Positions 179 through 20,870 of a DNA stretch of 21,049 bases are shown here, one piece after another (positions within the stretch are counted from its first letter, which is position 1; each line of letters starts with the position of its first letter). This stretch comes from Saccoglossus kowalevskii. Its lineage: Eukaryota > Hemichordata > Enteropneusta > Harrimaniidae. Location of the stretch: the NCBI RefSeq assembly GCF_000003605.2, contig NW_003144786.1, positions 1,271,475 through 1,292,523 on the forward strand, given 5' to 3'. The notes beneath the pieces were generated by a model. That model was not told where the DNA came from. It saw only the letters and a program-made list of their open reading frames with translations, and did no database searches. A program made the position numbers and the translations under genes.

Positions 179-3100
179 ATGAACCAATTCCATTTCAGAA
201 CCAACTTTCATATTATTCTCAAACCTTTGTATCAGTTTGTCACCCAAGTTAGTAGTTTCACTTGATAGATTTGGATCTATCACAAATATTGATTTGAACC
301 TATAGGTATCAACAAAAGAAGTAAATATTAAGCAATGATAACTAGAATCATGTCTCTGGCAATAAAAACAAGTTACTGTGGAATACTTTATTTTCGCTGG
401 AATTAATTTTCGCTGAAAAGGCTTCTTGGGCGTTTTGCTTGAAATTTATTTTCACTGATTTGTCATGAGTTTAATGTGAAATATAGGAAAACAAGTATAT
501 TCGCTGGATTTTATTTTCACGGAATCATCCCTTCTGCGAAAATAGCGAAAATAAATTCCAAGCGAAAATAAAGTATTCTACAGTACTCCATCAGTCACAC
601 TTTTCGTCTAAATGCAATGAAGCTTCACCATAAAAGTGTGAACTAGAGTTCTTATCATAATAGCATACACGATAATCTCCTCAATGTCAATAAAATTTAA
701 ATATCTTTACGTGTATAGAAAAGTAACTGTTAATGTCCTTTGAGTCAGTTATAATAACACTTTTCGTAAACTGTTGGGGTAGGCCTGTGACTGTAGCGCA
801 ACACTATGTTTGTTGAAAACTGTACAAATACATTTATCGGTTTATATAGAAAGCTAATTTATGCATTTATGGATCGACTACGAAAATCAAGCAATATGCT
901 TGTGTGTGCCTTCCTCAATAGTGATGTGAGATGGAAGTCTTACTTTAGTGCAGCATTGGACAAAGGTAGTCTACTAAGTTTACTATAGTTTTCAAATCTG
1001 TATGGTTTGTAATTTTTATCTTATTACATATTTTTTTGTATCTTTTTCTTTATATATGGACTATGTCTGAAATAGAACCATAATAATAATATATTTAGCA
1101 TACACAATTTCCTTCAATGAAAAATTAGTACTGGTATATAAACTTTAAAACTTATAACTATAGGTAATTTCCATCGATGCAAGTATTAAAGTAACTGCAT
1201 ATCATTAGCATACAATGATTTTCACATTCAAATTTTAACCCACATGACTGCATTAAAGGAAAAGTCAAGGCTAACAACATAATACTTGCAGATGAAAGAG
1301 CTCGACAAATGTAAGGACATGCAATTTACAGTTTGTTTATATCACTTTTCATTCTCTAGATATTCAACTTTTTAGTATTATAGTATTATATATTATAGTC
1401 CACCATCTTGGTTCTTCAGCAAAGGATTATGGGTAAAGTATAACATCATATTCACTGTTGTCAGAAATTAAGAAGATGGCGAACTACATAATATTGGTGA
1501 AAAGTCAAATATCTAGAGAAAGAAAAGTGATATACAAAAACTGTAAATTGCATTCTCCTACATTTGTGGAGCTCTTTCCTTGGGGAGCATTATGTTGTTT
1601 GGTTTGACTTCCTCTTTAAATTCAAGCAGCCTTATAGGTTTATGTTCAAAACTAATTAAAAATTGAAAACATTTATATATGAAATAATTTTTAAAATTTG
1701 GTGATAAATTATTTTATTTGCTATATTTACATGTACAGAAATAAATGTCATGTATATACCATTTGAGTAGCCTTGTTAACAGTGGAACACCCCACTGGTT
1801 TGTCTTTTTCTGTATGAAATGCTGTGGTAGCATAGATAGAGCTATTGCAGTCAGTGTCACATCATTACAAACTTCATTTTGATAGAAACCACTGGCAACA
1901 AGACATAACAAATGAACCTGAGAACAAACAAAAATGCTTGTAATGAATAGATTTCAATTATCTGAGAGTGATCATGACAGTATATACAGCAATTATTCAA
2001 GACATGTAACACAGTGGAATGTGCATAAAGTGGGTTACCGCTAAGTTCAATTTTAAAATCAAAATATTTCTGGAACTCAAAGACTCATGGTAATCACTAG
2101 TTTCAGCCCTTTTTTTACACGGTGGGTAGTAAATTGGACAATGAATATTTTTGCTGTAAGTGCAACTGATTTTTGGCAGCATTTTTTAAACTCAGGTAGT
2201 CACTGCACAACTGTGTTTAGGAACCTTCTGAATTGGTTGCTACAATGTATTATAAATGAATATTGTCTGATGAAGCGATTCTGTCTAGCACTATGCGTAG
2301 GCTCACACAATCAACTTTAATCTAATGCTTTTTGGAGTTTTTCGTAATTGGAAATTTGTTCCATACTGCTATTATAGTTCTGACATCACAAGTACAAGTA
2401 GTTATCAACAGACGTTATTGTTTTGAGTCCCTGGGTTATCATAAAACATTATTGCCCCTGAGTTATTGTAAATGAATTCTCACCTTATGCAGCTCAATTC
2501 GTTGTTCTTTATTGTATCGATTCATTTGACGTCGAAAATATGCAAGCAAATCACATTCATATTTCTTCCTACATTAATTGAATTCAAAATGTTTTTGTCA
2601 ATAACATAACCCCTGTTCAATACGAAATACCCCTCGGTTCTAACAGAGTTCACACATCTGGCATACAAGTGATAATAAAATAAATGCAATTAATTTACCA
2701 ATGTTTACTACCAGTATATGGGGACAGCCATCTTTTTGCATACAGCTAAATGACAGAAAACAAAACTAATTGAAGTTGGTGAGTACCCACTATAACACTA
2801 ATTGCAGACTTCATTATCAGTCTGAGCAATAACACAGTAAGTAGCCCACTGTACAGATGTGATATTTGGGAGGCCCCAACCGGTCTATTGTTTCCTTTTG
2901 CACATTGTTATGCTGCTGCCCCCATTGATTAGACAATATACATTGTACAGTTTGTAAACCAACAAGCTTTGCAGATTGAATCAAAGACACTGAGAAATAC
3001 ATGTATTTTTAAGTGTTTTTGATTGACTAGACATCTAGATTAACATTTTAGTTTACTCAAACTAATAATAATAATAACTTTATTGCTTTACCATGTTTCT

Positions 3101-5225: not shown

Positions 5226-5401
5226 TTCGATCTGTGTTTACTTCGCGTACATTGACGAAGAAAAAGGCAAGCCAAACAAAATCAGCTGAACATTTACATA
5301 CATTTACATACGACGTAATCTCGTATAAATCTCGCGCCAAATTTTCTTTGACGAGAACAGCAAACCAACCAATCACAGAACCGAATTCAAAGTAGGTCAA
5401 A
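5226..5401. promoter_or_regulatory. Shared bidirectional promoter region of XPC and LSM3
   Basis: This 176-bp gap separates the two divergent start codons, so both 5' UTRs and the core promoters must lie here or overlap the first exons. A GCGCCAAA at 5334-5341 matches the E2F consensus TTTGGCGC on the minus strand. A CCAATCA at 5369-5375 fits an NF-Y CCAAT box. The AAAATGGCGG at 5399-5408, over the LSM3 start codon, fits the YY1 element often found at start codons of housekeeping genes. An ACGTAA near 5314 resembles a CRE half-site. No convincing TATA box was seen. The motif matches are read by eye and the functions are inferred. Confidence 0.6.
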
Positions 5402-7561
5402 ATGGCGGACGACCAGGATCAGGTACGATAATTGATTGACTGGTTACTATTTACATATATTACTCGATATTAATGTGTAAAAAATAGTTTATTTTAACTT
5501 GTTCTTTCAATAGTCAGCGACTTTGGTCAGTCACTACTAATACTAGTAGTTCACTACCTCAGTACTGTACCGTACATAACCACTGGCACATGTGCATTGC
5601 ATTTGGCATATGCTTTGGCCCCGCTGCTAGTGTACTGACTGGTTAAACACTGCTTACGCGGTTATTTGTTGATATCGTTATGCCTGGTCAAAATTATGCA
5701 AATAAAGAGAATAATATTGAAACATTGTATATTATATTGTTACACCTATGTGAGGAGTATCCAGTGCTTTGGGAAGGTCATAGTTCAAGCACGTGAATTT
5801 ATTAAAAATGTGAAATTTGTTTTATCAAATTCCCAGTAATCTGTCCTGTCAATAGTGTATTATATTGTACAAAGTTAGGCATCTGTTATTCATCTGTTAT
5901 TAACTTATTGGTAGAATGATATTCTATTGAAATCACCAGACCAGTGTAAATCTTAATGAACAAGTCATTTTCAATGACATGGTTTGTTTCATAGACACTA
6001 CATAAATGACTTTATGTGTGATACATGTGTAAAGTTTAAGATTGATTGTTCCAGGTGTGTATGAGATATGTTGCCATAGAACTGCATTCTGGGAACATGA
6101 TGCACATCATTTGTTTTGGCAATTTTGTTTTTCAATGAATGTCGCTCCAGTGCTGCATCAGACATGACTTCATATATAAATTATGTATTGTATGTTCATA
6201 TACCTGTTTGATGATCAGATTCAAGGTGAAAATCATAATTAAAATATAAGTTACCCGGTAATATAGAATAAAAATTACGTGGTTCATTTTAGAAAATAAA
6301 TTGACCAGAAACTGTTCTTTCTCGGCCTTATTGACCATGCTGGCACATATTTATTCTCTAAACTTTGCAATTATTAGATGTATCCCTATTACACGCAAGG
6401 CCTTTTTTCAACTGTCTAAATGGATGTGTACTGATAATTTTGATGATTTCACTCTAGGTACCTTCAAACACAGTTGAAGAACCATTAGATTTAATACGAC
6501 TGAGTTTAGATGAAAGAATATATGTGAAAATGAGAAATGATAGGGAGCTTAGAGGAAGGCTACATGTAAGTGCTCATCTATGTTTTTCATGTCGTGTTTG
6601 TTTCACACTTTCACATTGTAAGAGTTGTAGGACACAATCCTTATAGTATATGAACCAATTTGTTGAACATTATCTTTCATGTAATAATAGTAATCTTGCA
6701 TAATCGTATCCTTATTTGGCTATTGACTCTGAAAAAAAAATTACAATAAAGATGAAAAACTGAAGAAGTAGCAAAACTGGAAATGCTAAAACACATCATG
6801 TGGGTAGCGTCAGTTTTACATTTACTGTTTTCATTAGGCATACGACCAACATCTAAATATGATTCTTGGTGATGTAGAAGAAACAGTTACTACAGTAGAA
6901 ATAGATGAAGAAACATATGAAGAAATTTATAAGGTAATAATAAAACTAACAAGCCAGGGTAGTCAAAGGTATTTCTCATGTTGCATATCTACAGTTGCCA
7001 GAGATCATGTATGTTTATTACTAAAATAACATTTTTTTTGATAGAAAAAGTGGACCAAACCTTACCTGTAATACTGTGGAACTATGAACTTAGAATTACA
7101 GTTCAATAGTATTACTACGTGTACCTTCATCAATTATGTCAACATGTTTTACTTAAGCAAATAATGTTTAATGCAAAGAAATTTGATCGCTAATTTTTAA
7201 ACATGGAATTGCATGGCATGGCATTTGTGCATGTAATTCAATCTACCGGTAATACATTTCTACTGTTTTTTGAGAGATGATAATTTCAGGGCACTTGTAC
7301 TGTCTATTTAAAATGTCACAATGTCATTGATATGGTTCAAGATTCCCCATTGATTTAACATGTCCACAACGTGTCAGTAGGGATCTACATTTTCGTTGAT
7401 GACAATGTGATAATCATATACATGTATATCCCATTGACTGAAAACTAATGTATTTATTTTATTTTCCATTTCAGTCAACCAAACGGAATATCCCTATGTT
7501 ATTTGTTAGAGGTGATGGTGTTATATTGGTCTCGCCGCCACTCAGAGGAACGACCATGTAA
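5402..7561 (+). CDS. LSM3: LSM3, U6 snRNA-associated Sm-like protein (complete)
   Basis: Exons are 5402-5422, 6458-6565, 6838-6933 and 7475-7561. All introns are phase 0 with GT/AG ends, and the protein is 103 residues against 102 in human. LSM3 is a ring subunit of the nuclear LSm2-8 complex on the U6 snRNA 3' end and of the cytoplasmic LSm1-7 mRNA-decay complex. The Sm1 motif spans [20 protein letters not shown] and continues through [18 protein letters not shown]. The Sm2 motif is [17 protein letters not shown]. Apart from the first ten residues and the tail (LRGTTM), it is almost identical to the vertebrate protein as known from family knowledge. The start MADDQDQ matches the usual N-terminus. 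It is divergent to XPC, with 176 bp between the two start codons. No clear AATAAA was seen just after the stop. Confidence 0.97.
5423..7474 (+). other. LSM3 introns: nothing recognised
   Basis: Introns 5423-6457, 6566-6837 and 6934-7474 are AT-rich. Intron 1, the largest, starts beside the shared promoter and could hold enhancer sequence, but no motif stands out. No snoRNA with clear boxes was seen. Confidence 0.5.
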
Positions 7562-8048
7562 TAACTATTCGTATATCGGCTTTTAATTTATCTTTCATTT
7601 TCCAAACAAAGATTTGTTTTTATACTGTTATGAAGTTAAATTATGAAGGATAATCAGTTCTTAGTTCATCTGATAGTAACATAATCCTGGACCAAATGTA
7701 TGGCGAGTATCATGTTGATCACCAGTGATGTACGTTTGCCATTTGGACTAATGTTTTTTTTATTAGGCAAGATAACTATTGCTTTCAACTGCAATTCATA
7801 AATACTCAAACAGGGTAGTATAAGAAGTAAAACCTTCATACTCTGTAGGTTTGAATATATGAGTATTTCTTGCACTGTTTCTGTTGCGCAAGATTTGTCA
7901 TCAATATACTGGTATGCGAAGTCTTATTTTAAGATGTATTATTATTCTATGGTATAATTTTTATGTATAGCCAACTAGAGAACCACTGCAGTCTTCATTT
8001 CTGAGAAATATGCAGTGCAAGAAAAATGAATCATTATCTTCAATGGGT

Positions 8049-8329
8049 CTTGTGCATGATCCGTTACACATCCAGGTATTTTGGGGGTATTTCTTGTGCA
8101 TGATCCGTCACACATCCAGGTATTTTGGAGGTATTTCTTGTGCATGATCCGTCACACATCCAGGTATTTTGGGGGTATTTCTTGTGCATGATCCATCACA
8201 CATCCAGGTATTTTGGGGGTATTTGGTATTTTGGGGGTATTTCTTGTGCATGATCCGTCACACATCCAGGTATTTTGGGGGTATTTCTTGTGCATGATCC
8301 GTTACACATCCAGGTATTTTGGGGGTATT
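8049..8329 (+). repeat. Tandem repeat, 44-bp unit, six copies
   Basis: Six nearly identical 44-bp units begin CTTGTGCATGATCCGTCACA and end GGTATTTTGGGGGTATTT. They differ only at a few sites (CCGTT, CCGTC or CCATC; one GGAGG in place of GGGGG). A 17-bp part-unit, the GGTATTTTGGGGGTATT end, is duplicated between units four and five, so the total is 281 bp. The near-identity suggests recent expansion. It lies about 490 bp downstream of LSM3. Confidence 0.93.
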
Positions 8330-9197
8330 GTTACTTACAAATATTGTATATCAATTTTTGTCATGTTTTTTAAACTGTTTGAATGTCAGTAACAGCTTGC
8401 ATTTTTTGGGGAACAAAATTTAGAAATTCTCATTTATTGAATTTGCACCCCCTCTCCCAGTAAGTACCAGGATGTGTGACCTTGTGAGAGTCATGCATAA
8501 GGATAATTCATTTTGTACATGAACTTCACAACAGTGCTGTAAACCTATAAGTTGTCCAAGTTTGAGATTTTACCGCATTGACTGCTGTAAGCCTCCACAG
8601 TAGTCATGGATAGCCTATATTTATCCTATAAAAAGCCTCTAGCATGAAATATCTTTACACAGTACTCAGTATTTTATTTCCAGTGAATTTGGTGCTTATA
8701 TTTTCTGATATTCTAACTTTGTAAACTAGCTTTCATCTGCAGATTTGGAAACTTGATGTACCGGTGATTATTTAAAGTAACTTTTTCTTATAACTGTACA
8801 TGTGGTGACTCATGAAAACATGAATGGTTGCTTAGCAACTAGGCTTCAAGAGTTGATAAAATAGCATATTTTCCATCAAAATATTGACAATACTAGATTA
8901 TGTGTTGGCTTGGTCACATTTCAAGGTTTTTTCTGATGATAAAATATTAAATATGAATTTGAGCGACTGGTATGTTTATCTCTTTAAGCCATATTATTTT
9001 GTAGCACATGATTTTGGTAAAATCTAACAATAGATCAGAATAACAATACCGTATTTGCTGAATTAAGTGTCTGTGCTCACGTAAATAACACAGTTATTGC
9101 CAATAAGTCATATTGCAATGATCAGGTGTAGTATAAATCCAATATTTGCTTTATATACATTTTTGTTAGGTATGTGCTTCTAATATAATACATACTA

Positions 9198-9336
9198 TGA
9201 GGTTTTAACGAGGATGCCTCAAAGTATGCACAAAAACAGTACAGCGGGAGTATCGATTGACATGCAGCGGAGGTCGATGCAACAGCATACTGTCTGAGTG
9301 CATACTTTGAGGTATCCTTGTAATAACCTTATTATT
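9198..9336. repeat. Inverted-repeat (hairpin) element next to the dispersed repeat
   Basis: The left arm near 9198-9255 and the right arm near 9278-9336 are inverted copies. The core CCTCAAAGTATGCA on the left pairs with TGCATACTTTGAGG on the right, with flanking homology through AGGTTTTAACGAGGAT and the complement of ATCCTTGTAATAACCT. The loop is about 20 bp. It runs directly into the dispersed repeat that starts near 9327, so the two may be one composite element. Confidence 0.6.
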
Positions 9337-9600
9337 ATTATTATACGTCTTTCCTTCCAAGGATACATCATGGCAATGCCGAAATTCAAAAAGTTTAGAA
9401 CAGAATCAGTGAACTTCTTTGTATGGTGTCCAGTCAAACACTGGTGGCAGCCATGTTTGTTTTAATTATTAGAGAATGTTTACGCATGTAATCATTCCAT
9501 ATTTGGAATTCGCATTTCCTAATATGGTAGGATGAAAATACCGCAAAATTACACTACGCTGTAACTTATTGCGTTACGGTGACAGATGTATAATAATGTA
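9327..9600 (+). repeat. Dispersed repeat, copy A
   Basis: This roughly 270-bp segment recurs at 15903-16178 in the same orientation. Shared blocks include CCTTCCAAGGATACATCATG, TTTAGAACAGAATCAG, GGTGGCAGCCATGTTTGTTT, CATTTCCTAATATGGTAGGA and GTGACAGATGTATA. It has no long open frame. The family is not recognised and may be a SINE or MITE fragment. Confidence 0.8.
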
Positions 9601-9751
9601 GTAGAAAGAGAAGTAATGATGATTGTTTTTCTTCATGAAGTAGATTTTTCGGGGAGAATTTGTGTAAAGTTATTTAAACAAAACATAAACTAAATTCTGA
9701 TAGGTTGTAATCAAATCTGCATGAAATGTACTCGTTCAAACTTTTCTTACA

Positions 9752-9921
9752 TACTGTAATATATTTTATTCTCGCTTTGAATCTATTTTTTCTGAAAATT
9801 CAGTGAAAATAAAATCCTGTGAATATACCTTCCCTATATTTTACATTCAACTCGTCAAAACACCCCAAATTTTTTTTCACAGTGAAGAGTAATTCCAGCT
9901 AAAATAAAGTATTTTACAGTA
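9752..9921 (-). mobile_element. TA-flanked MITE, copy 2 (LSM3-DUS4L spacer)
   Basis: Read on the minus strand it starts TA-CTGTAAAATACTTTATTTT and ends at a TA-flanked ACAG. Internal order on that strand (GGGGTGTTTTG, AAAATATAGGGAA, GGATTTTATTTTCACTGAAT) matches the copies at 374-585 and 19356-19516. Length is about 170 bp. It lies in the opposite orientation to those two copies. Confidence 0.65.
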
Positions 9922-10695
9922 TTCCATCTATTTTTAAGTGTGCAACAGTAACCCAGACTGCAATATGCATCAAAACATAGTTGTAAAGCCCATTGAACGT
10001 CATACAAACTGTACTTATTTATGGGCAATATTTTGTCATACCTCAATGTAGACATCATATAGAACTATGATTGTATAGAGGTCTTTTTTGTTTAGCTCCC
10101 TGTGATGGACAAGTAACAAATTTGGAAATTTTAACACCCCGACTACTGAATGACAACACAGATAGTCCTCGATTGCTGATAACTATGGTCTAAAAAAAGC
10201 CACATTTTAAAAGCACTAACAATTTTTTATATTTTGGCGAGTGAAAAATTTCATAAAATCACATAAATTGTGATAACTTTCAAACCTTGTGTGACACAGA
10301 AAAATGTACAGGAAAGTCTACTTCATCCTTACAGGGTCATGTCATTTCCTAAAATGAAAGGAATGATTCTGTGGCTAGTATGAAAGATATGGGCTTTTAA
10401 TGTTACAAAGGTACATTATATAGATGACATGACAATGTGGTGTAGCATTTTCTGTTTTTGTTCACATTACTGCCATTCCAGAAGTAAGGAAAACAAATGA
10501 TGTTTTGTAATTCATTTTTATTATAGAAAAGAATAAAAAGATATTTCTTGAATCGCATCTCAAAGCAATTGATTTATAACATAATTCAGACGTATCTGTG
10601 TTGAGTGAATTTCTCCTAAAACAATCTTGGCTCATATTACAGTACAAGAAACTGGCTGAAATATACACAGCAACTGGCTGTACTGGAAACATGTT

Positions 10696-11006
10696 ACAGA
10701 GGTTCTGAAAATTATTCGGACAGTCAGTTAGCAAGATGACTTTCATATTTGTCCAATCGGCATTGTTCCATCTACACGCATACAGATTAAATCATTCCAG
10801 TGCAGATTTTCAAATGATATGTGTTCATCAGAATACAGAAGCAAGTTATTTTGATTTGCATGACAATTCCCATAAAATAGTGAATCCCACGCAGCATGCT
10901 ATCAAATGGTGCTGTCAAGTCTAGAACAAAGCAAAAGCAAATGTCTTTCGCAAAGTTGCAAGCCATCTTGCTAAGTGACTGTCCGAATAATTCTCAGAAC
11001 AGCTGT
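10696..11006. mobile_element. Foldback element FB1, 311 bp (LSM3-DUS4L spacer)
   Basis: The left end (ACAGAGGTTCTGAAAATTAT, then TCGGACAGTCAGTTAGCAAGATG) is the inverse of the right end (ending CGAATAATTCTCAGAACAGC-TGT) over about 45 bp. It shares these ends with the larger element at 16662-18003. No transposase is present and no clear target duplication was found. The right end lies about 108 bp from the DUS4L stop codon. Confidence 0.75.
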
Positions 11007-11113
11007 TATTTGGACTGACCATAAACATAGTCCTTAGGACGTGTACAACAAATTTAATTACAATTCAATAATAAAAACTTGACAATCATAAATTAGATTA
11101 AAGATAATAAATA

Positions 11114-14100
11114 TTAGACCACTGATATAAAGGTATCACCAATATTATAATCATCTACATTTAGCATGGGTTTATGTTTATTAATTTTCTCTGGTTTCCA
11201 CATGTTCTGTGATTTATTCAGTTGGTGATGAAATCTTGCAGGATTGTAAGATACTTGATAGTGTTCTTGTAAATAGTCTAATACTGCTGGTACATTGGAT
11301 AATGTATTGAAGATTCGTTTGTCAGCCTTTGAAGTCACATGTTCCATCATTTGTATCAAATGATGATGAAAACATTGAAACTGAGTACCCAACTGAAGAG
11401 AAATATCGACCTGTTGAAAAATATAAATAATAACACACTGGGTCAGATCAGATCAGTGCAAGTTATACCACACTACTGTATTTGTTTTATTGCAAGTGTT
11501 TTATTTTGAAGTGCACATCAACAAGAAATTACATTTACCAGTATTGCTGGATCATTAAAATATTTGATGCCTTATTTTACAATATACCGATCATTAACAT
11601 ATTGTTTGCGCAACTAATAGAACAAATACAGTAATACTTGTACTAATATTGGTAGAGATACTATTATTGTAAACTCAACATGTATATCTGACAAAAAGCA
11701 AATTTTCTAGTTGATACTGCACCACCAACAACACATTTGATTTGATAATATGTAAGTAGATATCTCTTACCCAGTCTTGGATGCACTCGAGTGGAGTAAA
11801 TTCATACCCAGCATACATTGCAGGATTATGGAGCATTCCTCTGGCAGCCATAACACCTTTTAAAGAAAAAACAATTTATAGTGAAACAAAACAAGCGTTT
11901 TCATTACTTTAAACTTCATTCAAATATGAAATGTTGTCGAATGAGTTGCAGTGTTACAATAAAACAACCCAAATATTTCACACTTCTCAACAAACCTGTT
12001 AAACAAGAATATGGTTTTGACTATCATTAAATGACTTTGACAATTATCCAAACTATTCAATTTATAAGAGTTATATTTCTCTAACATACTGAAACCATCA
12101 ATTCTTGTTTTTTTTTTCAATATTTTTGTGCCCAGTGACATTCCCTACAGTTTATCTATTTCTACAGCTGTGCTGAAGGTACATGTAGTGTATTTTTGCC
12201 ACAAAAACACATTTGAGACTGCATGATGGCAATTTATCCGACATTTTGTATATGTACAAGGCTTCATGAATGATAGAGAAAGGTGAATATATAAATAGCA
12301 GTGGTTTCCAACTCACCATCAACCTTTGTTAGTTCATGTACCCTATTGACATCTTTCAGTGACTTCACATCACCATTTGCTATAACAGGAATTGACAGAT
12401 TCTCTTTAATTATTTTGATATCTTCATAATTCACTGGTTCTGTTCTTTGTTCTGTGGTTCTGCCATGCACTGTAATCCAGGAAACCCCAGCATGTTCAGC
12501 TTTCTGACACAAGTCTAAAGTATCCCTGAAAAGAAGAGCGTGAGTGAATTATTAGTACAAGTGTATTGTATATTTCTATTTTCATATACTGAAAACAAGT
12601 TGGAAATATAGGTGCAAATTATTTAGCAGACATCATAATACCTGATGTATACAGAATTTTATTTATTATAAAATATTGAAAGAATAAAATTATGAAAACT
12701 AAAAATTCAATATCGATAGATTTGATCAAATTGTCATATTTATAGATCCTTACATAATAGCAATTGATGGACAACAAATTCACTATATTCAATTCTTATG
12801 TTGTGCTTCCACTATTTTAACAGATATGCAAAATACCCTCAGTAACAAGAGAATTTTTAGATCTGAACATTTTAATACAATTGTACCTGAGATTATGCCT
12901 GAGCCTAATTTTAATAGACACTGAAAATTTTTCATCTTGGATCTTGTTCCTTGTTTGCTGTACCATGTCTTTGACAAGCTCTGGGTGTTTTATGAGATTT
13001 GCACCAAAACCATTTGCCATTGCCCACCTAAAATACAAATGTAATATGAAATACTCATTGGTAACCCTACCAGAAGACAATTGAATTAATTGCTTGAAAC
13101 TATATTTTACTAATTCAACTTAGCACAACCTCAATGTTCAGAATTCTATCAATGTTTGCAATGTTCCAGGTCTGCATGTTAATGTCTACAATGTTCCACG
13201 TCTGTCAATATTTACAATGTTCCAGGTCACTCAACATTTTAAATGTTCCAGGTCTATCAATGTTTACAATGTTCCAGGTCTGTCAATGTTTACAATGTTC
13301 CAGGTCACTCAACATTTTAAATGTTCCATGTCTATCAATGTTTACAATGTTCCAGGTCTATCAATGTTTACAATGTTCCAGGTCTGTCAATTTTTACAAT
13401 GTTCCAGGTCTATCAATGTTTACAATGTTCCAGGTCACTTAACATTTAAAATGTTCCAGGTCTATCAATATTTAGAGTGTTCCAGGTCTGTCAATATTTA
13501 CAATGTTCCAGGTCTATCAATATTTACAATGTTCCAGGTCTATCAATATTTAGAGTGTTCCAGGTCTGTCAATATTTACAATGTTCCAGGTCTATCAATA
13601 TTTACAATGTTCCAGGTCACTCAACATTTTAAATGTTCCAGGTCTATCAATATTTAGAGTGTTCCAGGTCTGTCAATATTTACAATGTTCCAGGTCTGTC
13701 AATATTTACAATGTTCCAGGTCTGTCAATGTTTACAATGTTCCAGGTCTGTCAGTATTTAGAGTGTTCCAGGTGTGAAAACTTTATGAATGTAACTATAA
13801 CTTTACCTTTGTGGACAGCCACAGTTCAAGTCCACACCATCTGCAAATCTAACAATTATGAAATAAATAATAAAGAAATCAAAAAATTAATTTCACTTAA
13901 ACTCAAGTATACATTGCAATATTACACCATATCAACCATCTGCTGATTTGTACTATATTATACATGTATTTAAAATTAGAGAACTTTACATTAGAGATGT
14001 AAAGGAATGCATCATAAATAATAAATTATAATAAATAAAGCACAGCACTAAAATATCACCAAGATAAATATTTGCACAAGTTATTTAACTTAAAGTTAAA

Positions 14101-14950
14101 ATCCATCGTCAGTTAGAATAATCTAATGATCATGAGTATATACTTACGGAGCAATTAGTTCTGTAGCAGTTACAAAATCTTTTGTGTTGTTGGCAGCAAA
14201 CTGCACAATTAGAGGCTGGTCTCCTGTTTAATATATAATTTTTTAAATAAAAATCATAATTTCGCTAATTTAATCTGAAAAACTGAACTTGAAAATAATA
14301 GAATGAAATATTTACCTTTGTGTGTTGAGAATTCATTATCTCGTGCCTTGATTGACTTTATAAATGAGTCAGATACAATCATAGGAGTAAAAGTTACATC
14401 ACAACCATACCTGCAATGAGTTTAATTAATTATACAAATTCATGTAATACAGAAAACATGATTTGATTGCTCTTAGTATCAGCTAAATAGATACCTATAA
14501 AGATATAGAAACTTCAGATGTTGAGTCAGTTTGAACAACCCCCACCATGAAAAAACTTTTCAAGCTCAAAATTTCAAATATTGCCTACAACCTTGTCTGC
14601 AAGTTTTTTTTCCTCAAGAACAATCAATATTTGAAAGGATATTTCAGATGTCAACTTACTTTCTCACCAATGTTCTGAATGCCAGCCTATAAATAAATAA
14701 ATAATAACAAATGAATAAATAGTAGGAAATCAAAATGTTTCTGTTATCCATATGGTAAATTGAGAATACATGTATTACAAATATTATTGTTTGTACAAAT
14801 TATCTTCAAATTAACTTACTTTGAATATCTCACCATTGGAGCAGATATGTTTAATACTTTATCATTTTTTAACATCTCTTGCACAGAAACTCTCGGTCGA
14901 CAAGGCATGGTTGTATTACTGCTTTCGTTGCAATCGTCGAAGCTTGCCAT
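11114..14950 (-). CDS. DUS4L: tRNA-dihydrouridine(20a/20b) synthase, DUS4-like (complete)
   Basis: Nine exons: 14950-14820, 14686-14660, 14410-14316, 14223-14148, 13848-13807, 13027-12887, 12525-12317, 11856-11771 and 11410-11114. All are GT/AG and phase-consistent, giving 367 residues. This is an FMN- and NADPH-dependent enzyme that reduces U20a/U20b in the tRNA D-loop. The TIM-barrel opening is APMVRYSKLAFRTLVRKYGC. NCGCPQRWAMANGFGANLI contains the expected catalytic Cys121. ITVHGRTTEQR has His191, and IPVIANGDVKS with GVMAARGML forms the flavin phosphate site. The start is ATG 14950, with an in-frame TAG seven codons upstream. Exon 2 is only 27 nt. The C-terminal tail is longer than in the human protein of about 317 residues. 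A minus-strand ATTAAA at 11058-11053 is a possible poly(A) signal. The gene is head-to-head with COG5. Confidence 0.95.
11411..12886 (-). other. DUS4L introns 6 to 8: nothing recognised
   Basis: Introns 11411-11770, 11857-12316 and 12526-12886 are AT-rich, with plausible donors and pyrimidine-rich acceptors but no repeat element noticed. Confidence 0.6.
13133..13776 (+). repeat. 26-bp minisatellite, about 24 units, in DUS4L intron 5
   Basis: The unit is AATGTTCCAGGTCTATCAAT followed by RTTTAC, repeated about 24 times with a constant 26-bp period after two longer degenerate units at the left. Recurrent unit variants are CACTCAACATTTTA (around units 4, 7, 12 and 19) and ATTTAG-AGTGTTCC (around units 13, 16, 20 and 24), which hint at larger block duplications. 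It fills about 83% of the 779-bp intron and ends 30 bp from the exon 5 splice donor. Stop-free plus-strand frames through it are a by-product of the repeat and are not called as genes. Confidence 0.95.
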
Positions 14951-15390
14951 GTCCACTTCACCTGCATGCTACAATCTCATCGTGTGCATTATGAACTGTA
15001 AACAGAAAGTATTTATACTCGTATGTACTCAGATTCGCAAAATATTGTTGAATGTGTCGTCAATTGAATTGAAAATGGTATCGATCTCAGTATCTCTACA
15101 ACATGTACACATTTACTGCATTCGCTGGCGACTGCAACAAAACAAGTAATGTAATGCGAACAAACAAACCAAACTGAACATTCACAGTTTGTCGCTCAGA
15201 TCAAAGTATTTAATTATTTGTTTAAAATAAATTATATATTTGAAAACTATTTGAAAGTAATTATTATTATTGTTCTAAATATAATACAAATATTATATAG
15301 GCGACATGTATACTTCTGTTTATGTTTAAACTATTATTTTTGAATGAGTCGACCACTGGTCTGCGAATGTTAGAATACTCAATTGCCAGC
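14951..15390. promoter_or_regulatory. Intergenic region between the divergent DUS4L and COG5 starts
   Basis: About 440 bp separate the DUS4L ATG and the innermost COG5 ATG. In a head-to-head arrangement this must contain both promoters. It holds an AT-rich core around 15205-15300. No clear CCAAT, E2F or YY1 element was found, unlike in the XPC-LSM3 spacer. Its role is inferred from position only. Confidence 0.45.
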
Positions 15391-18300
15391 ATGGATCCCA
15401 AACTGCAAAGTCGATTGCTGGAAGATGGTAAGTATCGGTTATTTGATGATCGGATGTACTGCAATCTGTCTAGTGTTAGATATAGTTATTTACATCTTGT
15501 ACTTTAGTTCAACTAGAATATTGGATCATAAATTAACACTTGGTATAAGAGCATCGAGGTAAATCCCCTGCCTGCCTACGTGGCTCTCAACTCGAGAGGG
15601 CACCAACTACACACAGTGGACACATCAACAAACGTTAATTTGGGACCCGCACATTCAATTTCTGTTTTGGTTTCCATCGTGCTTTATTGTAATCGTATCA
15701 CATAATTGTGCTGGGTAAAAACTGGACTACTCGTGTGATTTAGGAATATAAAACAATCTTGTTTATCTGGTGAACAGTTATGTTTATTTATTTGTTTATC
15801 TATTTACTTATAATCAGTCTTTATTAAAACTTGAGGCAGAAAAATGGTTACAAATAAAAAATAAATGAATAAATCGATGATTACTCTGATTTCACCTGAA
15901 ACCTTATTATTATACATCTTTTCCTTCCAAGGATACATCATGGGAATGAAAAAAATCCAAAATGTTTAGAACAGAATCAGCAAACTTTTTTATGTAGAGT
16001 CTGGTCAAACCCTGGTGGCAGCCATGTTTGTTTTTATTATTAGAGGACGCTTACGCACATAATCATTCCATATTTTGAATTTGCATTTCCTAATATGGTA
16101 GGATGAAAATACCCTGTAAAATACCACAAAAATTATGGCACACTGTAACTTATGGCGTTACTGTGACAGATGTATATTAATAGTAATTATTATTATTGGA
16201 TTTTAGATGTATTTCATGAATTCCTTAAGGATGATTTTGATGTCCAGGAGCATACTAACAATGTCATGCAAAGCATGGCTATATCACAGCAGTTATCAAA
16301 ACTGGTTGAGGGCATCTCATTATTGGACCAAGAACTACATTCACAGGTGAGAAATATCCGCTTGTGTTCAATCGAGTGTTGTTGACATCGGGATAGCATA
16401 TTACCATAATGCCATTCTAGGAAGATGGTCACATAGCCCTGTCCCAAACTGAAATATAGTTCCTCTGGAAAAATACACTATATGTCAGCACTGGCACTTG
16501 CACATAAAAAAAATCAGGAGTGACAGTAGTGACATACAGAACTGTCACCTGGCACAAAAATATTTTTTTTTTAATTTTTAAAAAATGTTGATCTGGTCAT
16601 GGTACAGTGGTTAGTGTTTGTCTTGCATCATAGTCAACTACTCACTCACCAGTATAAATTTACAGATGTTCTGAGTATTATTCGGACAGTCAGTTAGCAA
16701 AATGACTTGCAACTTTGCAAAACACTTTGGTCTTTGCCCAATCTAGACTTGTCGGCGCCACTTGAGTGACGGGCGCGTGGTTTGGGGTTACTATTTCATA
16801 GGCGTTGTCGGCTTGGTGAATTGTAAGTATTATCTAGCGTGCCTGTGTCATATGACGCCTTACTCGCCGATTTTGGCTAAAATTCCGCTCCGCCGCCTCT
16901 TTACAACAGTGTTTATACACGGAACTTGATATTGCTTTTTACAATTTGGGTTGCCTTTGAATCACATATTTTAGTGAAATATTGTTTATAGAGTGAAATA
17001 TTACTGTCATACATAATTCAATCTTTGAAACAACAGAAACTAACACATAATAACGATAATCAAATTTGTGTTTGAAGTTCGAAAGTAGTTGCGTTATTTC
17101 CGGTTTCAACTAGTTCGAAAATAGAACGTCCTTGAGCGCAATAAAATCACACGTAGAACTCCATCCGAATCAGACTCTAGCAGCGTAAACTTATTGCAAT
17201 TTGCGCGATTTGGGCCCAGTTTGTTCTTACAAGCTTTCTAAGTTTCATTTATCATTATTTAGAAAGCAGGTCTCTGAAACGATTTAATTAATATATCCGT
17301 AAAATACCTGGCAATCGACGATTGACTTCGAAACGTTCGAAATTTCGAACAAACTCCCGGCACACCTAGCGCGATATGCGTCAGATCGGTGTAGAAGACG
17401 CCGAACTGCAGCGTCAATGTCGTTATACCCGTCATTTTCAAACTGCAGTTGAAAAAGTGATTCGATCAAGCACAGTCCTTCTATCATGTGGATCAAGGAA
17501 GGCACTTTTGATTTCACAAAATCCATCAAACCATTATAATCGAGTTTTCCATCTGTGTATCCCTGACGTACTCACAGCACCAGTAATGTAAAAACAACTT
17601 TTAGTTTGGCCCAAAACTGTCGCGAAACTGCAGCGCGTCCCGCTAAGAAACTTTACTTTGAGTCTTCCCGCCAACGACGAGTTTATTAATACCTGGGGTT
17701 ACTCAACACTCGGGAGTTGTTTTGTAAATTACGCTATGTCAGGTGGACTCAGATGGTTATAACAATTTAAAATAACACTTTGAATGCATATACAACATAT
17801 AACCTGTTAATATATGGTAACCAACGCGTGTCGTTTTGAAAACAGCATTTTACTCGCATCTTGCAAGATAATGGAATGATTCCTATTGTGGGCATGCCAA
17901 TACAACGGTGCCATCAAGTCTAGATTGGAAAAGACCCAAGTGTTTTGCAAAGTTTCAACATATATTGCTAACTGACTGTCCAAATAATTCTCAGAACGGC
18001 TGTAAATATACTGTAAAACCATTTATTTTCACTGCCATTTCATATATTTATATTCATGAATTTTCCAAACAATCAGCTCTATTGTTATTTGACATGTGTA
18101 TTAATTTAGCAGATTTTACTTATCAGCATAAAAGCAAAATTAAAACCCAGTGAATAATTGATGCCTTTACAGTATTCTGCTGTAACCACCAAATATGTGC
18201 TGTTTGAATGGCATCTTTTGAACTGTTTCTGACCCCAATCTACATTAATGAACTCTGGCATTCTTGTTGCAAGTAGTGGATTTCCAGATAGAACTGGGGC

Positions 18301-20870
18301 TTTCAGAACTTACATTGAATGCTTTATCTATGGATTTGAATAGTGAGTATTTTTTTAGACTGATATTCAGAATGACAATCACCAATGACCAGAATCTTAA
18401 CAGTCCACTTAGTAAATAATCCCAGAAAAAGCAGACCTACATTGGCACTGGCAAGTTTCTGGCAGTAATCCTGGTCTCTATTCTGAATATAATAATGTGA
18501 AAATTTTACATCTTAATAAAAGGCCAAGGTAAAGTTTAAATTGGTCTTGTTCCTTTCTTCTAGTCTATTAGAACAATTTGATTGATGTGTTTATATTTAG
18601 GTTGTTGCCCGGCATGAGGATTTGTTATCACAGGCAACTGGAATTGAAACGTTAGAGGTTGTTCTGCAGATGATGCAGACTAGAATTAAGTCATTGCAGG
18701 CTGCTGTAGAAAGGTAACAGTTTTCATTATTCCAGTATAACCGCAAAACTGTTCATGAGATTGTTAGTCTTATTTGTATTGGTAAAGAATGCTTGAATTA
18801 GAAGTATACCAGGATCAGTATTAAATCTTGGAATCTTAGAGCTAGAGTTGAAATGAGTTAAATTCAGATTACTATTCAAGATAAGTTATACATTAATTGT
18901 TAATTCTTTTTTAGGATAAGGGGTAAGGTTGTTGAACCATACAGTAAATCGTGGCTAGGACAGCACAACTTAGAAGATTACAGGTAACACACACATGCTT
19001 TGTTTATACATGTAGTGGTGGTGGTTCCATTCTCTATGCAAAAACAATTTTATACTTTGATTCTGAATAGCTGGCACTATTTTTTGTTTTGTGTATCCAT
19101 ACTTGTTTCTCGAATGTGATTCGACCCAAGCTTAAACAGGTTTTCTTGTCAACACTTATTTTCTCTGATTACAGGAAGCATGTGATCTTCTAAGACGTAT
19201 CATCAGAATTTTATATCTCAGCAAAAGACTTCATAGCCAGTTACAAGGTGGGGCCAGAGAGATCACCAAAGCTGCTCAAAGTCTGAATGAATTAGGTTTG
19301 TAATAGTGTACATATTTGCTCTATTAAATATGCATATTTTGGCTTTATTCGAACTTACTGTAAAATACTATTTTAGCTGAATTTAATTTTTGCAAAAAAG
19401 GCTTTTTTAGTGTTTTATATGAATATAAAATATAGGAAAAATATTATATTTGTTTGATGTTATTTTCATAGTATCATCCCTTCAGCAAAAAAACAAAAAT
19501 AAATTATTTTACAGTAGTTTACCGGATTATAAGTTTTCATTTGAAGGGACAAAAATTGACAATGATGATGATAGGCTTAAAGGTGTGTAATGTACACTCA
19601 TTGACCAATGATGCACCTAATTCTGTGTTGTTATAGCGACCAGTGTCTAGTGTGTAATATGTAATTTTTATTTGGGCGTAGATTACTTGTACCAAGGTGT
19701 TGACTTGGAAGGTATTGAAGTCATAGAACAAGATACACAATTTATAGAAAAAGCCAGGAAAGATGTTGAAGCACAAGCTGAGAAAATGCTGGAACAAGGC
19801 ATGGAAACACAGGTAGGTAATTATTGAACACTCAGACACTCGCAGTACTTCTTACAATACACTGAATCTACTTGTTGTTTCTATTCAGAGGTGTTTATTC
19901 TCTTTTGTCCAGCATTGTTAGACCTTCCATAATCAAGAGTATTCTAGGGGCGGAGCTACATCACAAAACGTTCTATGTTGCTAAGACGCACACCAATGTA
20001 CCATGTCAAATTTATATATGCTGCACATCTAGGGGTTGTTTTGTTACACTGTTCAAGAGAGTCTCAACAACTAGTCCAAAGTACAGATTTTTGAGTGTTT
20101 TTGACTGTTGTTTTTATCTGTTGTGGTTGCCAGGCAGTGAAAATGCCCCGATGTTTGCTCCCAAAAATAGTCAGTAGTACTGGGTCAACTGGGTTACAAA
20201 ATATTATAAAAATCTATTTCCATTTCAAGCAATCATATCAACCAATAGTGAACAGGTTTGTGTAATTGGTTCGAGACTACCATCAACTATATATGCTTGT
20301 ATTTATTTCACAGAATCAAACCCAGGTTGCCACTTCCTTGCAAGTATTTCACAATCTTGGTTGTTTGACTGAAGTAGTCAATAGAGTGGTGTGCAATATT
20401 CGTAAATCTCTTGAAAGAAATGTCATTGAAGCTGTAGATGTGAGACTGATATCACAGAGTCAGGCCCCTGGAAAGGGTGGTCCTGGTCATGCTGCCATGC
20501 CAATGCCTGGCAATACGGCTGCTTTTAGAGCCTCATTATGGACCAATATGGAAAAATTAATGGATCAGATTCATGCTGCGTGTGGACAGGTGAGCATGAA
20601 AAAATGTTTTCTAGAACTGTTTTTTATCTACTGATTTGTTTCTTTGCATTTGTTTTCTAATCAAAACAAAAAAAATACATAAGATTATACAGTTGCTTTT
20701 TACATGTACCAAAATTATGGACAATGTCTAAATGGTATATATTAAACTGTATGATGGATATAATTTCACTTTCTTCTATTTCACTTCTGTAGATTCAGCA
20801 CCTTCAAAAAGTACTTGCTAAGAAGAGAGATCCAGTCACTCATGTTTGTTTCATTGAAGCTCTAATCAAG
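15391..20870 (+). CDS. COG5: Conserved oligomeric Golgi complex subunit 5, 5' part (eight exons, one-base frame break in exon 4)
   Basis: Exons: 15391-15427, 16207-16346, 18601-18713, 18915-18983, 19175-19295, 19682-19812, 20314-20589 and 20793-20870, all GT/AG; the gene continues to the right. COG5 is a lobe-B subunit of the COG tether (CATCHR family), pairs with COG7, and acts in retrograde intra-Golgi transport. Diagnostic stretches are [53 protein letters not shown] and [20 protein letters not shown]. The N-terminal part reads as a helical coiled-coil region. Exon 4 lacks one base at 18946-18949: read literally, translation leaves the family frame after VEPYSK and stops at 19191-19193. 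All other exons are open and well conserved. ATGs at 15322, 15367 and 15391 are in frame after a TAG; 15391 ([12 protein letters not shown]) is closest to where family similarity begins. Confidence 0.93.
15903..16178 (+). repeat. Dispersed repeat, copy B (COG5 intron 1)
   Basis: Second copy of the segment at 9327-9600, matching through most of its length with scattered substitutions and short indels. It ends about 30 bp before the COG5 exon 2 acceptor, so it contributes the sequence in the likely branch-point region of intron 1. Confidence 0.8.
16662..18003. mobile_element. Foldback element FB2, 1.34 kb, with unrelated interior (COG5 intron 2)
   Basis: The left arm (about 16662-16803) and the inverted right arm (about 17870-18003) share ACAG..GTTCTGAG, TATT.GGACAGTCAGTTAGCAA, AACTTTGCAAAACACTT.GGTC and CCAATCTAGACTTG. 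The ends match FB1 at 10696-11006. The roughly 1 kb between the arms is unlike FB1 or the rest of the intron. It is richer in CG dinucleotides (for example 16748-16775, 16860-16905, 17310-17400 and 17625-17680) and holds a coding-like segment on the minus strand. This could be sequence captured by the element or a nested insertion. Confidence 0.65.
17308..17526 (-). CDS. Uncharacterised coding-like segment inside FB2, possible captured first exon
   Basis: From ATG 17526 the minus strand is open for 73 codons ([20 protein letters not shown]... to ...SKSIVDCQ) and reaches CAG followed by GTATTT, a possible splice donor at 17308/17307. The frame is also open about 15 codons upstream of the ATG, to a TGA. 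Composition is amphipathic and protein-like, with many G/C third positions, unlike the AT-rich surroundings. I do not recognise the family. No matching downstream exon was found on the minus strand. A chance frame is possible. Confidence 0.3.
18009..18174. mobile_element. Possible relative of the TA-CTGT MITE family (COG5 intron 2)
   Basis: It is bounded by TA-CTGTAAA and TTTACAG-TA and carries TTATTTTCACTG near its left end, as in the other copies. The interior does not share the ordered internal blocks, so this may be a different family with similar ends. It begins six bases after the right end of the foldback element at 16662-18003. Confidence 0.4.
18184..18600 (+). other. Rest of COG5 intron 2 before exon 3: nothing recognised
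   Basis: About 420 bp of AT-rich sequence between the element at 18009-18174 and exon 3. No open frame or repeat is evident. The earlier part of the intron (16347-16661) holds short A/T runs near 16560 and nothing else. Confidence 0.5.
19356..19516 (+). mobile_element. TA-flanked MITE, copy 3 (COG5 intron 5)
   Basis: Starts TA-CTGTAAAATACTATTTTAG and ends AAATTATTTTACAG-TA. Internal blocks (AAAAAAGGCTTTTTT, AAAATATAGGAAAA, AGTATCATCCCTTCAGC) align in order with the copy at 374-585. It is about 161 bp, and several deletions relative to copy 1 suggest an old insertion. Confidence 0.65.
19813..20313 (+). other. COG5 intron 6: nothing recognised
   Basis: A 501-bp intron. The segment 19945-20160 is slightly richer in G+C than its surroundings and stays open on the plus strand for about 100 codons, but has no protein-like features or flanking splice logic. 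It could be an unidentified old repeat. Confidence 0.5.

What the first reader, a model, noticed from the sequence alone, without database searches (positions are those of the whole stretch)
179..20870. Two ancient divergent gene pairs side by side: XPC|LSM3 and DUS4L|COG5
In human, XPC and LSM3 are head-to-head neighbours on 3p25, and DUS4L and COG5 are head-to-head neighbours on 7q22. Here both pairs occur within 21 kb, each in the same divergent orientation. This implies that both bidirectional units predate the split of this lineage from vertebrates. The linkage of the two pairs may be ancestral and lost in vertebrates, or it may be a local fusion.
Basis: partly seen in the sequence, partly recalled or inferred. 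Interest (0 to 1): 0.75.

Follow-up and report, generated by a model that had tools for sequence, protein, structure and literature searches.

The report
Ancestral gene neighbourhood, split in vertebrates
In this invertebrate-like animal genome, genes that in people lie on chromosomes 3 and 7 still sit side by side, most likely because one ancestral chromosome was duplicated in early vertebrates and each copy then lost different genes.

Summary
Spliced models give XPC(-)|LSM3(+) and DUS4L(-)|COG5(+) in one gap-free 21-kb stretch, with 176 and 416 bp between start codons and 3,552 bp between the LSM3 and DUS4L stops. The window lies in a 2.0-Mb scaffold of a held 572-Mb genome. Its flanks, read to a plan noted beforehand, hold BMT2/SAMTOR(-), FOXP(+), the rest of XPC(-), [window], a fasciclin-domain gene(-) and HBP1(-). 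Human HBP1, COG5, DUS4L, BMT2 and FOXP2 stand in one chromosome-7 gene series (PMC6834745). So XPC|LSM3 (human 3p25) lies inside a block otherwise human 7q. Blocks of human chromosomes 3 and 7 belong to one paralogon of the early vertebrate genome duplications (PMC3826523). Best reading: the linkage is ancestral and was split in vertebrates by duplication and reciprocal gene loss; a local fusion is less likely. No other animal genome could be examined, so the age of the block is untested, and human XPC-LSM3 adjacency is recalled. This is a well-supported instance of a known kind: ancient microsynteny with retained divergent pairs.

The parts
179..5225 (-). XPC, exons 1-6 (5117-5225, 4060-4722, 3475-3574, 2484-2568, 1760-1917, 179-299); continues leftwards off the window
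   Evidence: splice model; human XPC in PDB E 1.3e-24; BHD1-3 exons at scaffold 1259.1-1263.2 kb
5226..5401 (.). XPC|LSM3 gap between start codons (176 bp), presumed shared promoter; CpG o/e 1.79; CCAAT 5369-5373, E2F-like TTTGGCGC 5334-5341; YY1-like ATGGCGG at the LSM3 start just outside it (5402-5408)
   Evidence: 12 of 6629 same-length scaffold stretches reach both CpG count and o/e; motif names recalled
5402..7561 (+). LSM3, complete: exons 5402-5422, 6458-6565, 6838-6933, 7475-7561; 103 aa
   Evidence: Pfam LSM; human LSm3 E 1e-56; 3 of 3 genome matches at E <= 0.001 are these exons
7562..11113 (.). 3,552-bp interval between the convergent stops of LSM3 and DUS4L; holds a 44-bp tandem array (8048-8329) and repeats; no gene recognised
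11114..14950 (-). DUS4L, complete: nine exons 14820-14950, 14660-14686, 14316-14410, 14148-14223, 13807-13848, 12887-13027, 12317-12525, 11771-11856, 11114-11410; 367 aa
   Evidence: Pfam Dus 1.8e-66
14951..15366 (.). DUS4L|COG5 gap between start codons (416 bp), presumed shared promoter; CpG o/e 1.20
   Evidence: 271 of 6545 same-length stretches reach both values: weak
15367..20870 (+). COG5, exons 1-8 (15367-15427, 16207-16346, 18601-18713, 18915-18983, 19175-19295, 19682-19812, 20314-20589, 20793-20870); one-base frame slip within exon 4; continues rightwards off the window
   Evidence: Pfam COG5_N and COG5_C, the two sides of the slip searched apart

Best explanation
The window is the middle of an ancestral animal gene block, BMT2-FOXP-XPC|LSM3-DUS4L|COG5-HBP1, that stayed together in this lineage. 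Shown: the order and orientation of these genes on one scaffold, and that HBP1, COG5, DUS4L, BMT2 and FOXP2 stand in one human chromosome-7 gene series. Inferred: the block lay on one pre-vertebrate chromosome. The two vertebrate genome duplications copied that chromosome. XPC and LSM3 then survived only on the copy now on human 3p, and DUS4L, COG5, HBP1 and BMT2 only on the copy now on 7q, while FOXP survived on both. Each divergent pair probably persists because the two start sites share one short promoter, so a break between them would harm both housekeeping genes. That part is inferred from 176-bp and 416-bp gaps and, for XPC|LSM3, CpG retention.
For: Two pairs in divergent orientation in gap-free sequence. 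The plan to name the flanking genes and place them in human was written, the flanks fetched: BMT2/SAMTOR (PDB E 1.1e-86; Pfam Bmt2 2.5e-5), FOXP (Forkhead 1.3e-28 and FOXP-CC 4.1e-31; best PDB hits FOXP4, FOXP2, FOXP1), HBP1 (AXH 1.4e-10, HMG box 1.6e-16; PDB HBP1 3.7e-10). Nine genes were recognised in the readable 133,789 of 301,049 scaffold bases. Seven of the nine could be given a human counterpart, and 7 of 7 have one on human 3p or 7q: HBP1, COG5, DUS4L, BMT2 and FOXP2 in the chromosome-7 row of Table 3 of PMC6834745, LSM3 near 3p25.1 (PMC12078399), XPC recalled. The paralogon of human 1/3/7/12/X is described as one ancestral chromosome quadrupled by the two duplications (PMC3826523). 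Its families L1CAM, LRRN, SYP, PLXNA and FLN have members NRCAM, LRRN3, SYPL1, PLXNA4 and FLNC in the same chromosome-7 row as COG5 (family assignment recalled). One of its chromosome-3 blocks spans 3-13 Mb, next to XPC at about 14 Mb (recalled).
Against: No outgroup genome was checked. XPC-LSM3 adjacency and both head-to-head orientations in human are recalled. FOXP has four human copies; FOXP3 (X) and FOXP4 (6p) are not on 3p or 7q, and the FOXP1 place on 3p is recalled too. The paralogon paper's main text names none of FOXP, XPC, COG5 or HBP1. A fasciclin-domain gene lies between COG5 and HBP1 here, and the human list has BCAP29, SLC26A4 and many others between DUS4L and BMT2/FOXP2, so the block is not intact on either side. 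PMC7269912 reports chromosome fusions before the second duplication, so sharing a paralogon does not strictly prove one ancestral linkage group. More than half of the fetched flank letters are N, and flank genes were spotted by eye. The CpG signal at DUS4L|COG5 is weak.
Confidence: 0.75

Rival explanations
1. Local fusion: XPC|LSM3 moved next to DUS4L|COG5 in this lineage only, by an inversion or translocation, and the pairs were not neighbours before.
For: Gene order within animal chromosomes is largely scrambled over such times (PMC7269912, passage). No outgroup was examined. Repeats and a tandem array lie in the 3.55-kb join.
Against: The genes recognised on both outer sides (FOXP and BMT2; HBP1) and inside (DUS4L, COG5) have human counterparts in one chromosome-7 series. 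A random insertion would have had to land in a region whose partner block from the vertebrate duplications carries XPC|LSM3. An inversion within the same ancestral chromosome remains possible and would keep linkage but not adjacency.
Confidence: 0.18
2. Assembly chimera: two unrelated pieces were joined between LSM3 and DUS4L.
For: The scaffold has many N runs, and COG5 exon 4 has a frame slip that looks like a sequence error. Dispersed repeats lie at 9350-9597 and 15920-16181.
Against: No N in the window. The pieces on both sides of the join (FOXP and BMT2; DUS4L, COG5 and HBP1) have human counterparts in one chromosome-7 series, which a random chimera would match only rarely.
Confidence: 0.04
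3. The pairs are held together by a shared long-range regulatory landscape, such as enhancers of FOXP spread over its housekeeping neighbours, rather than by promoter sharing alone. This rival concerns the force that keeps the block, not its ancestry.
For: FOXP, a developmental regulator (recalled), is the next recognised gene beyond XPC. Papers listed treat microsynteny kept by cis-regulatory constraint (listing and starts of abstracts seen).
Against: No enhancer evidence here. In human, many genes lie between DUS4L and FOXP2, and XPC is on another chromosome from FOXP2 (XPC and FOXP1 positions recalled).
Confidence: 0.15

Closest known systems
Ancient bidirectional promoters of chordates (amphioxus functional genomics, 2018, PMC6292497)
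   Same: Divergent, mostly housekeeping pairs retained since before vertebrates. The paper counts 372 putatively ancestral ones, most of them lost in vertebrates, above all in stem vertebrates (54.5%) (passages).
   Different: Its list was not seen, so it is unknown whether these two pairs are in it. No start-site data here.
Visual-opsin/oxytocin-receptor paralogon on human 1, 3, 7, 12, X (2013, PMC3826523)
   Same: Blocks of the same human chromosomes 3 and 7, formed by quadrupling one ancestral chromosome (abstract, parts 1-4 of 9 and passages).
   Different: XPC, LSM3, DUS4L, COG5, HBP1, FOXP and BMT2 are not among its 34 neighbouring families (Table 2), and XPC (about 14 Mb, recalled) lies just outside the 3-13 Mb block it scanned.
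Chordate and bilaterian linkage groups (2020, PMC7269912)
   Same: Chromosome-scale linkage kept between amphioxus, scallop and vertebrates and copied by the vertebrate duplications (abstract and passages).
   Different: Linkage without gene order.
Human 7q22 cluster PRKAR2B-HBP1-COG5-GPR22-DUS4L-BCAP29
   Same: HBP1, COG5 and DUS4L follow one another (the cattle list has GPR22 before COG5).
   Different: Here XPC|LSM3 lies on the DUS4L side where human has BCAP29, and a fasciclin-domain gene lies between COG5 and HBP1.

Membership tests
Ancient conserved bidirectional (head-to-head) gene pair | divergent genes, starts under 1 kb apart | tested here: met
   ATG-ATG 176 and 416 bp; true start sites unknown
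Ancient conserved bidirectional (head-to-head) gene pair | same two orthologues adjacent and divergent in a distant lineage | tested here: inconclusive
   COG5 and DUS4L are listed together in human and cattle, GPR22 between them in the human list; orientation recalled. XPC-LSM3 adjacency recalled only (searches found no text)
Ancient conserved bidirectional (head-to-head) gene pair | promoter-like CpG retention between the starts | tested here: inconclusive
   XPC|LSM3 met: 12 of 6629 stretches reach its values; DUS4L|COG5 weak: 271 of 6545
Ancient conserved bidirectional (head-to-head) gene pair | both genes transcribed from the shared region | not testable with these tools
   no RNA data
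Ancestral linkage split by the vertebrate genome duplications with reciprocal loss | the vertebrate locations lie in one paralogon | tested here: met
   chromosome 3 and 7 blocks of PMC3826523 with chromosome-7 members named in PMC6834745; exact place of XPC and family assignments recalled
Ancestral linkage split by the vertebrate genome duplications with reciprocal loss | flanking genes in the unduplicated lineage map to the same vertebrate regions | tested here: met
   7 of 7 genes given a human counterpart, of 9 recognised; FOXP has two further human copies elsewhere (recalled)
Ancestral linkage split by the vertebrate genome duplications with reciprocal loss | same linkage in other unduplicated outgroups | not testable with these tools
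   no animal genome other than the window's own was reached; LSM3 scans of viral contigs and genome contigs gave no relative

The most novel reading that the evidence does not exclude
BMT2-FOXP-XPC|LSM3-DUS4L|COG5-HBP1 is a multi-gene microsyntenic block of the bilaterian (or older) ancestor. Its order can still be read on human 7q with XPC|LSM3 removed to the 3p partner region, making it a gene-order record of reciprocal loss after the vertebrate genome duplications.
Probability: 0.5. Interest if true: 0.5.

Novelty: new member of a known kind. Interest (0 to 1): 0.42.

Why it matters
If true, it gives a concrete pre-duplication gene order for part of the human 3p/7q paralogon. It shows why two human chromosome regions that look unrelated carry once-adjacent housekeeping pairs. 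It also places FOXP, ancestor of the speech-associated FOXP2 (recalled), next to XPC in the ancestral order, which can be checked in any chromosome-level invertebrate genome.

Tried and rejected
First exon models had off-by-one splice sites and were replaced. XPC exon 6 was first cut short (180-259, 179-260) and corrected to 179-299. Searches for XPC/LSM3 as a bidirectional or head-to-head pair found no paper that says so, and LSM3 with DUS4L gave 0 papers. Three papers on paired genes or bidirectional promoters named none of the four genes in their main text, nor did a fourth. LSM3 scans of viral contigs and genome contigs gave no relative. A 95-aa ORF inside the COG5 intron element has no Pfam match, and 85 aa of it no PDB match. 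No Rfam family reached its gathering score and no tRNA was found in the window. No Pfam hit for the XPC part inside the window; PDB named it. No PDB hit at E <= 0.001 for the COG5 piece. NCBIfam did not name DUS4L. Papers sought and not held.

Full report
WHAT IS THERE. I read the 21,049-bp window and built spliced models (corrected). The order is XPC(-) 179-5225, LSM3(+) 5402-7561, DUS4L(-) 11114-14950, COG5(+) 15367-20870. LSM3 (103 aa) and DUS4L (367 aa) are complete; XPC and COG5 run off the two ends. Identities come from Pfam (LSM, Dus, COG5_N, COG5_C) and from PDB sequences (human LSm3 1e-56; human XPC 1.3e-24). DUS4L is the least independently named.

GEOMETRY. The start codons are 176 bp apart for XPC|LSM3 and 416 bp apart for DUS4L|COG5. 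The stops of LSM3 and DUS4L face each other across 3,552 bp. The window has no N. XPC|LSM3 is CpG-retaining (11 CpG, o/e 1.79; 12 of 6,629 same-length stretches of the readable scaffold reach both values). DUS4L|COG5 is weaker (12 CpG, o/e 1.20; 271 of 6,545 reach both). CCAAT, E2F-like and YY1-like matches lie in or at the first gap (motif names recalled, no significance computed).

THE GENOME. The window lies at C3574:1271475-1292523 of a 572,110,611-bp genome of 4,830 contigs. C3574 is 2,014,074 bp. The window is bounded by N runs of 6,842 and 10,859 bases, so both pairs sit in a single ungapped stretch. I cannot tell assembly gaps from withheld bases. The LSM3 query (89 aa, exons 2-4) has three matches at E <= 0.001, all in the window. 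A DUS4L search of the genome did not complete.

THE FLANKS. I wrote the plan to name the neighbours, and to see whether their human counterparts fall in the 1q/3p/7q/12/X paralogon, before fetching them. Of 301,049 bases fetched or in hand, 133,789 are not N. Recognised by eye in ORFs and then tested: BMT2/SAMTOR(-) about 1227.0-1230.6 kb (Pfam Bmt2 2.5e-5; PDB SAMTOR 1.1e-86; a further 69-aa piece had no Pfam hit); FOXP(+) about 1245.5-1252.8 kb, perhaps beginning further left (Forkhead 1.3e-28, FOXP-CC 4.1e-31; best PDB hits FOXP4, FOXP2, FOXP1); XPC 3' exons(-) 1259.1-1263.2 kb (BHD1-3; a further stretch at 1257.0 kb resembles the recalled XPC C-terminus); a fasciclin-domain gene(-) about 1303.7-1304.5 kb (2e-12 for one piece); HBP1(-) 1309.7-1312.3 kb, with possible further exons to 1313.6 kb (AXH 1.4e-10 and HMG box 1.6e-16; PDB HBP1 3.7e-10); and one or more Thr-rich VWD, mucin-like genes(-) about 1352-1424 kb, interrupted by N (VWD 2.4e-17 for one piece). 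Other ORFs, some perhaps genes, were not identified, and gene finding by eye may miss some. The stretch from 1131475 to 1225929 reads N throughout.

MAPPING TO HUMAN. The chromosome-7 row of Table 3 in PMC6834745 (part 1 of its section 9 read; passage) lists in series: PRKAR2B, HBP1, COG5, GPR22, DUS4L, BCAP29, SLC26A4, CBLL1, SLC26A3, DLD, LAMB1, LAMB4, NRCAM... LRRN3... TMEM168, BMT2, GPR85, SMIM30, PPP1R3A, FOXP2. This part of the row appears to be in map order; the later part of the row is not. Passages of PMC3603989 (cattle, GPR22 before COG5 there) and PMC3560059 agree on the COG5/DUS4L cluster. So BMT2, FOXP(2), DUS4L, COG5 and HBP1 are five of the seven genes given a human counterpart and all are on human chromosome 7; the band 7q31 for BMT2 and FOXP2 is recalled. 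LSM3 is near 3p25.1 (passages of PMC12078399); XPC beside it, and FOXP1 on 3p, are recalled, as are FOXP3 on X and FOXP4 on 6p. Two recognised genes (fasciclin, VWD) were given no human counterpart and were left out of the count. Result: 7 of 7 such genes, of 9 recognised, have a human counterpart on 3p or 7q. The XPC|LSM3 pair stands inside the chromosome-7-like series, between FOXP and DUS4L.

WHY 3p AND 7q. PMC3826523 (2013; abstract, parts 1-4 of 9 of its main section, and passages) describes one ancestral chromosome quadrupled in the two vertebrate genome duplications, now on human 1, 3, 7, 12 and X and on chicken 1, 12 and 26. Its scanned blocks include chromosome 3 at 3-13, 45.3-55.2, 48.5-58.5 and 124-134 Mb and chromosome 7 at 74.8-84.7 and 123-133 Mb. 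XPC at about 14 Mb (recalled) lies at the edge of one chromosome-3 block. COG5 lies close to NRCAM in the listed series; human NRCAM is at 107.8-108.1 Mb, between the two chromosome-7 blocks. Members of its families L1CAM, LRRN, SYP, PLXNA and FLN (NRCAM, LRRN3, SYPL1, PLXNA4, FLNC; assignments recalled) occur in the same chromosome-7 row as COG5. Its main text names none of FOXP, XPC, COG5 or HBP1. This makes a split by duplication and reciprocal loss the simplest account of why the pairs are on different human chromosomes. Caveat: PMC7269912 (2020; abstract and passages) shows that several linkage groups fused before the second duplication, so sharing a paralogon is strong but not strict evidence of one ancestral linkage group. 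PMC8302630 (abstract and passages) gave no placement of these genes.

HOW IT WORKS. Most likely each pair is kept by a shared short promoter; a break would harm two housekeeping genes. Shown: divergent orientation, short gaps, CpG retention in one pair. Not shown: start sites, transcription, co-regulation. PMC6292497 (2018, passages) counts 372 putatively ancestral bidirectional promoters in chordates, most lost in vertebrates. [quoted passage not shown] it also reports that in metazoa conservation does not peak at short distances. I did not see either list. The joining of the two pairs needs no function: it may simply be inherited linkage.

Observation confirmed. Interpretation partly supported: ancestral linkage is favoured over local fusion by the flanks and the paralogon, but no outgroup was checked. 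The human head-to-head orientations are recalled; the searches made found no held paper that states XPC-LSM3 adjacency, and none that holds LSM3 with DUS4L. This is a well-supported instance of a known kind, not a new one.

Noticed in passing
window 18915-18983 (COG5 exon 4): The reading frame slips by one base inside this conserved exon, so exons 5-8 read in another frame. Probably an assembly error, possibly a real variant; reads would tell.
   Followed up: partly
window 16655-18010 (COG5 intron 2): A 1.36-kb element with 84-nt terminal inverted repeats (86% complementary); its interior has the highest CpG counts of the window and holds a 95-aa minus-strand ORF with no Pfam match, perhaps a captured gene piece. 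A short sister element lies at 10694-11006.
   Followed up: partly
window 13145-13773 and 8048-8329: Two tandem arrays: 24 copies of a 26-bp unit in a DUS4L intron, and a 44-bp unit downstream of LSM3.
   Followed up: no
window 9350-9597 and 15920-16181; 374-608, 9880-9944, 19422-19539: Dispersed repeat families shared between the two halves of the window, as expected if both belong to one genome.
   Followed up: no
window 4060-4722 (XPC exon 2): A 663-bp exon coding a charged N-terminal region that aligns poorly with human XPC except near its end.
   Followed up: partly
scaffold C3574: 1303.7-1304.5 kb (L016); 1352-1372 kb (L021, L022) and 1398-1424 kb (L025, L026, L029, L030): A fasciclin-domain gene lies between COG5 and HBP1, and Thr-rich VWD, mucin-like coding sequence follows HBP1.
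   Followed up: partly
scaffold C3574: 1261.1-1262.3 kb (loci L013, L014): A tandem array with a repeated open frame lies between XPC 3' exons, seen in the ORF list.
   Followed up: no
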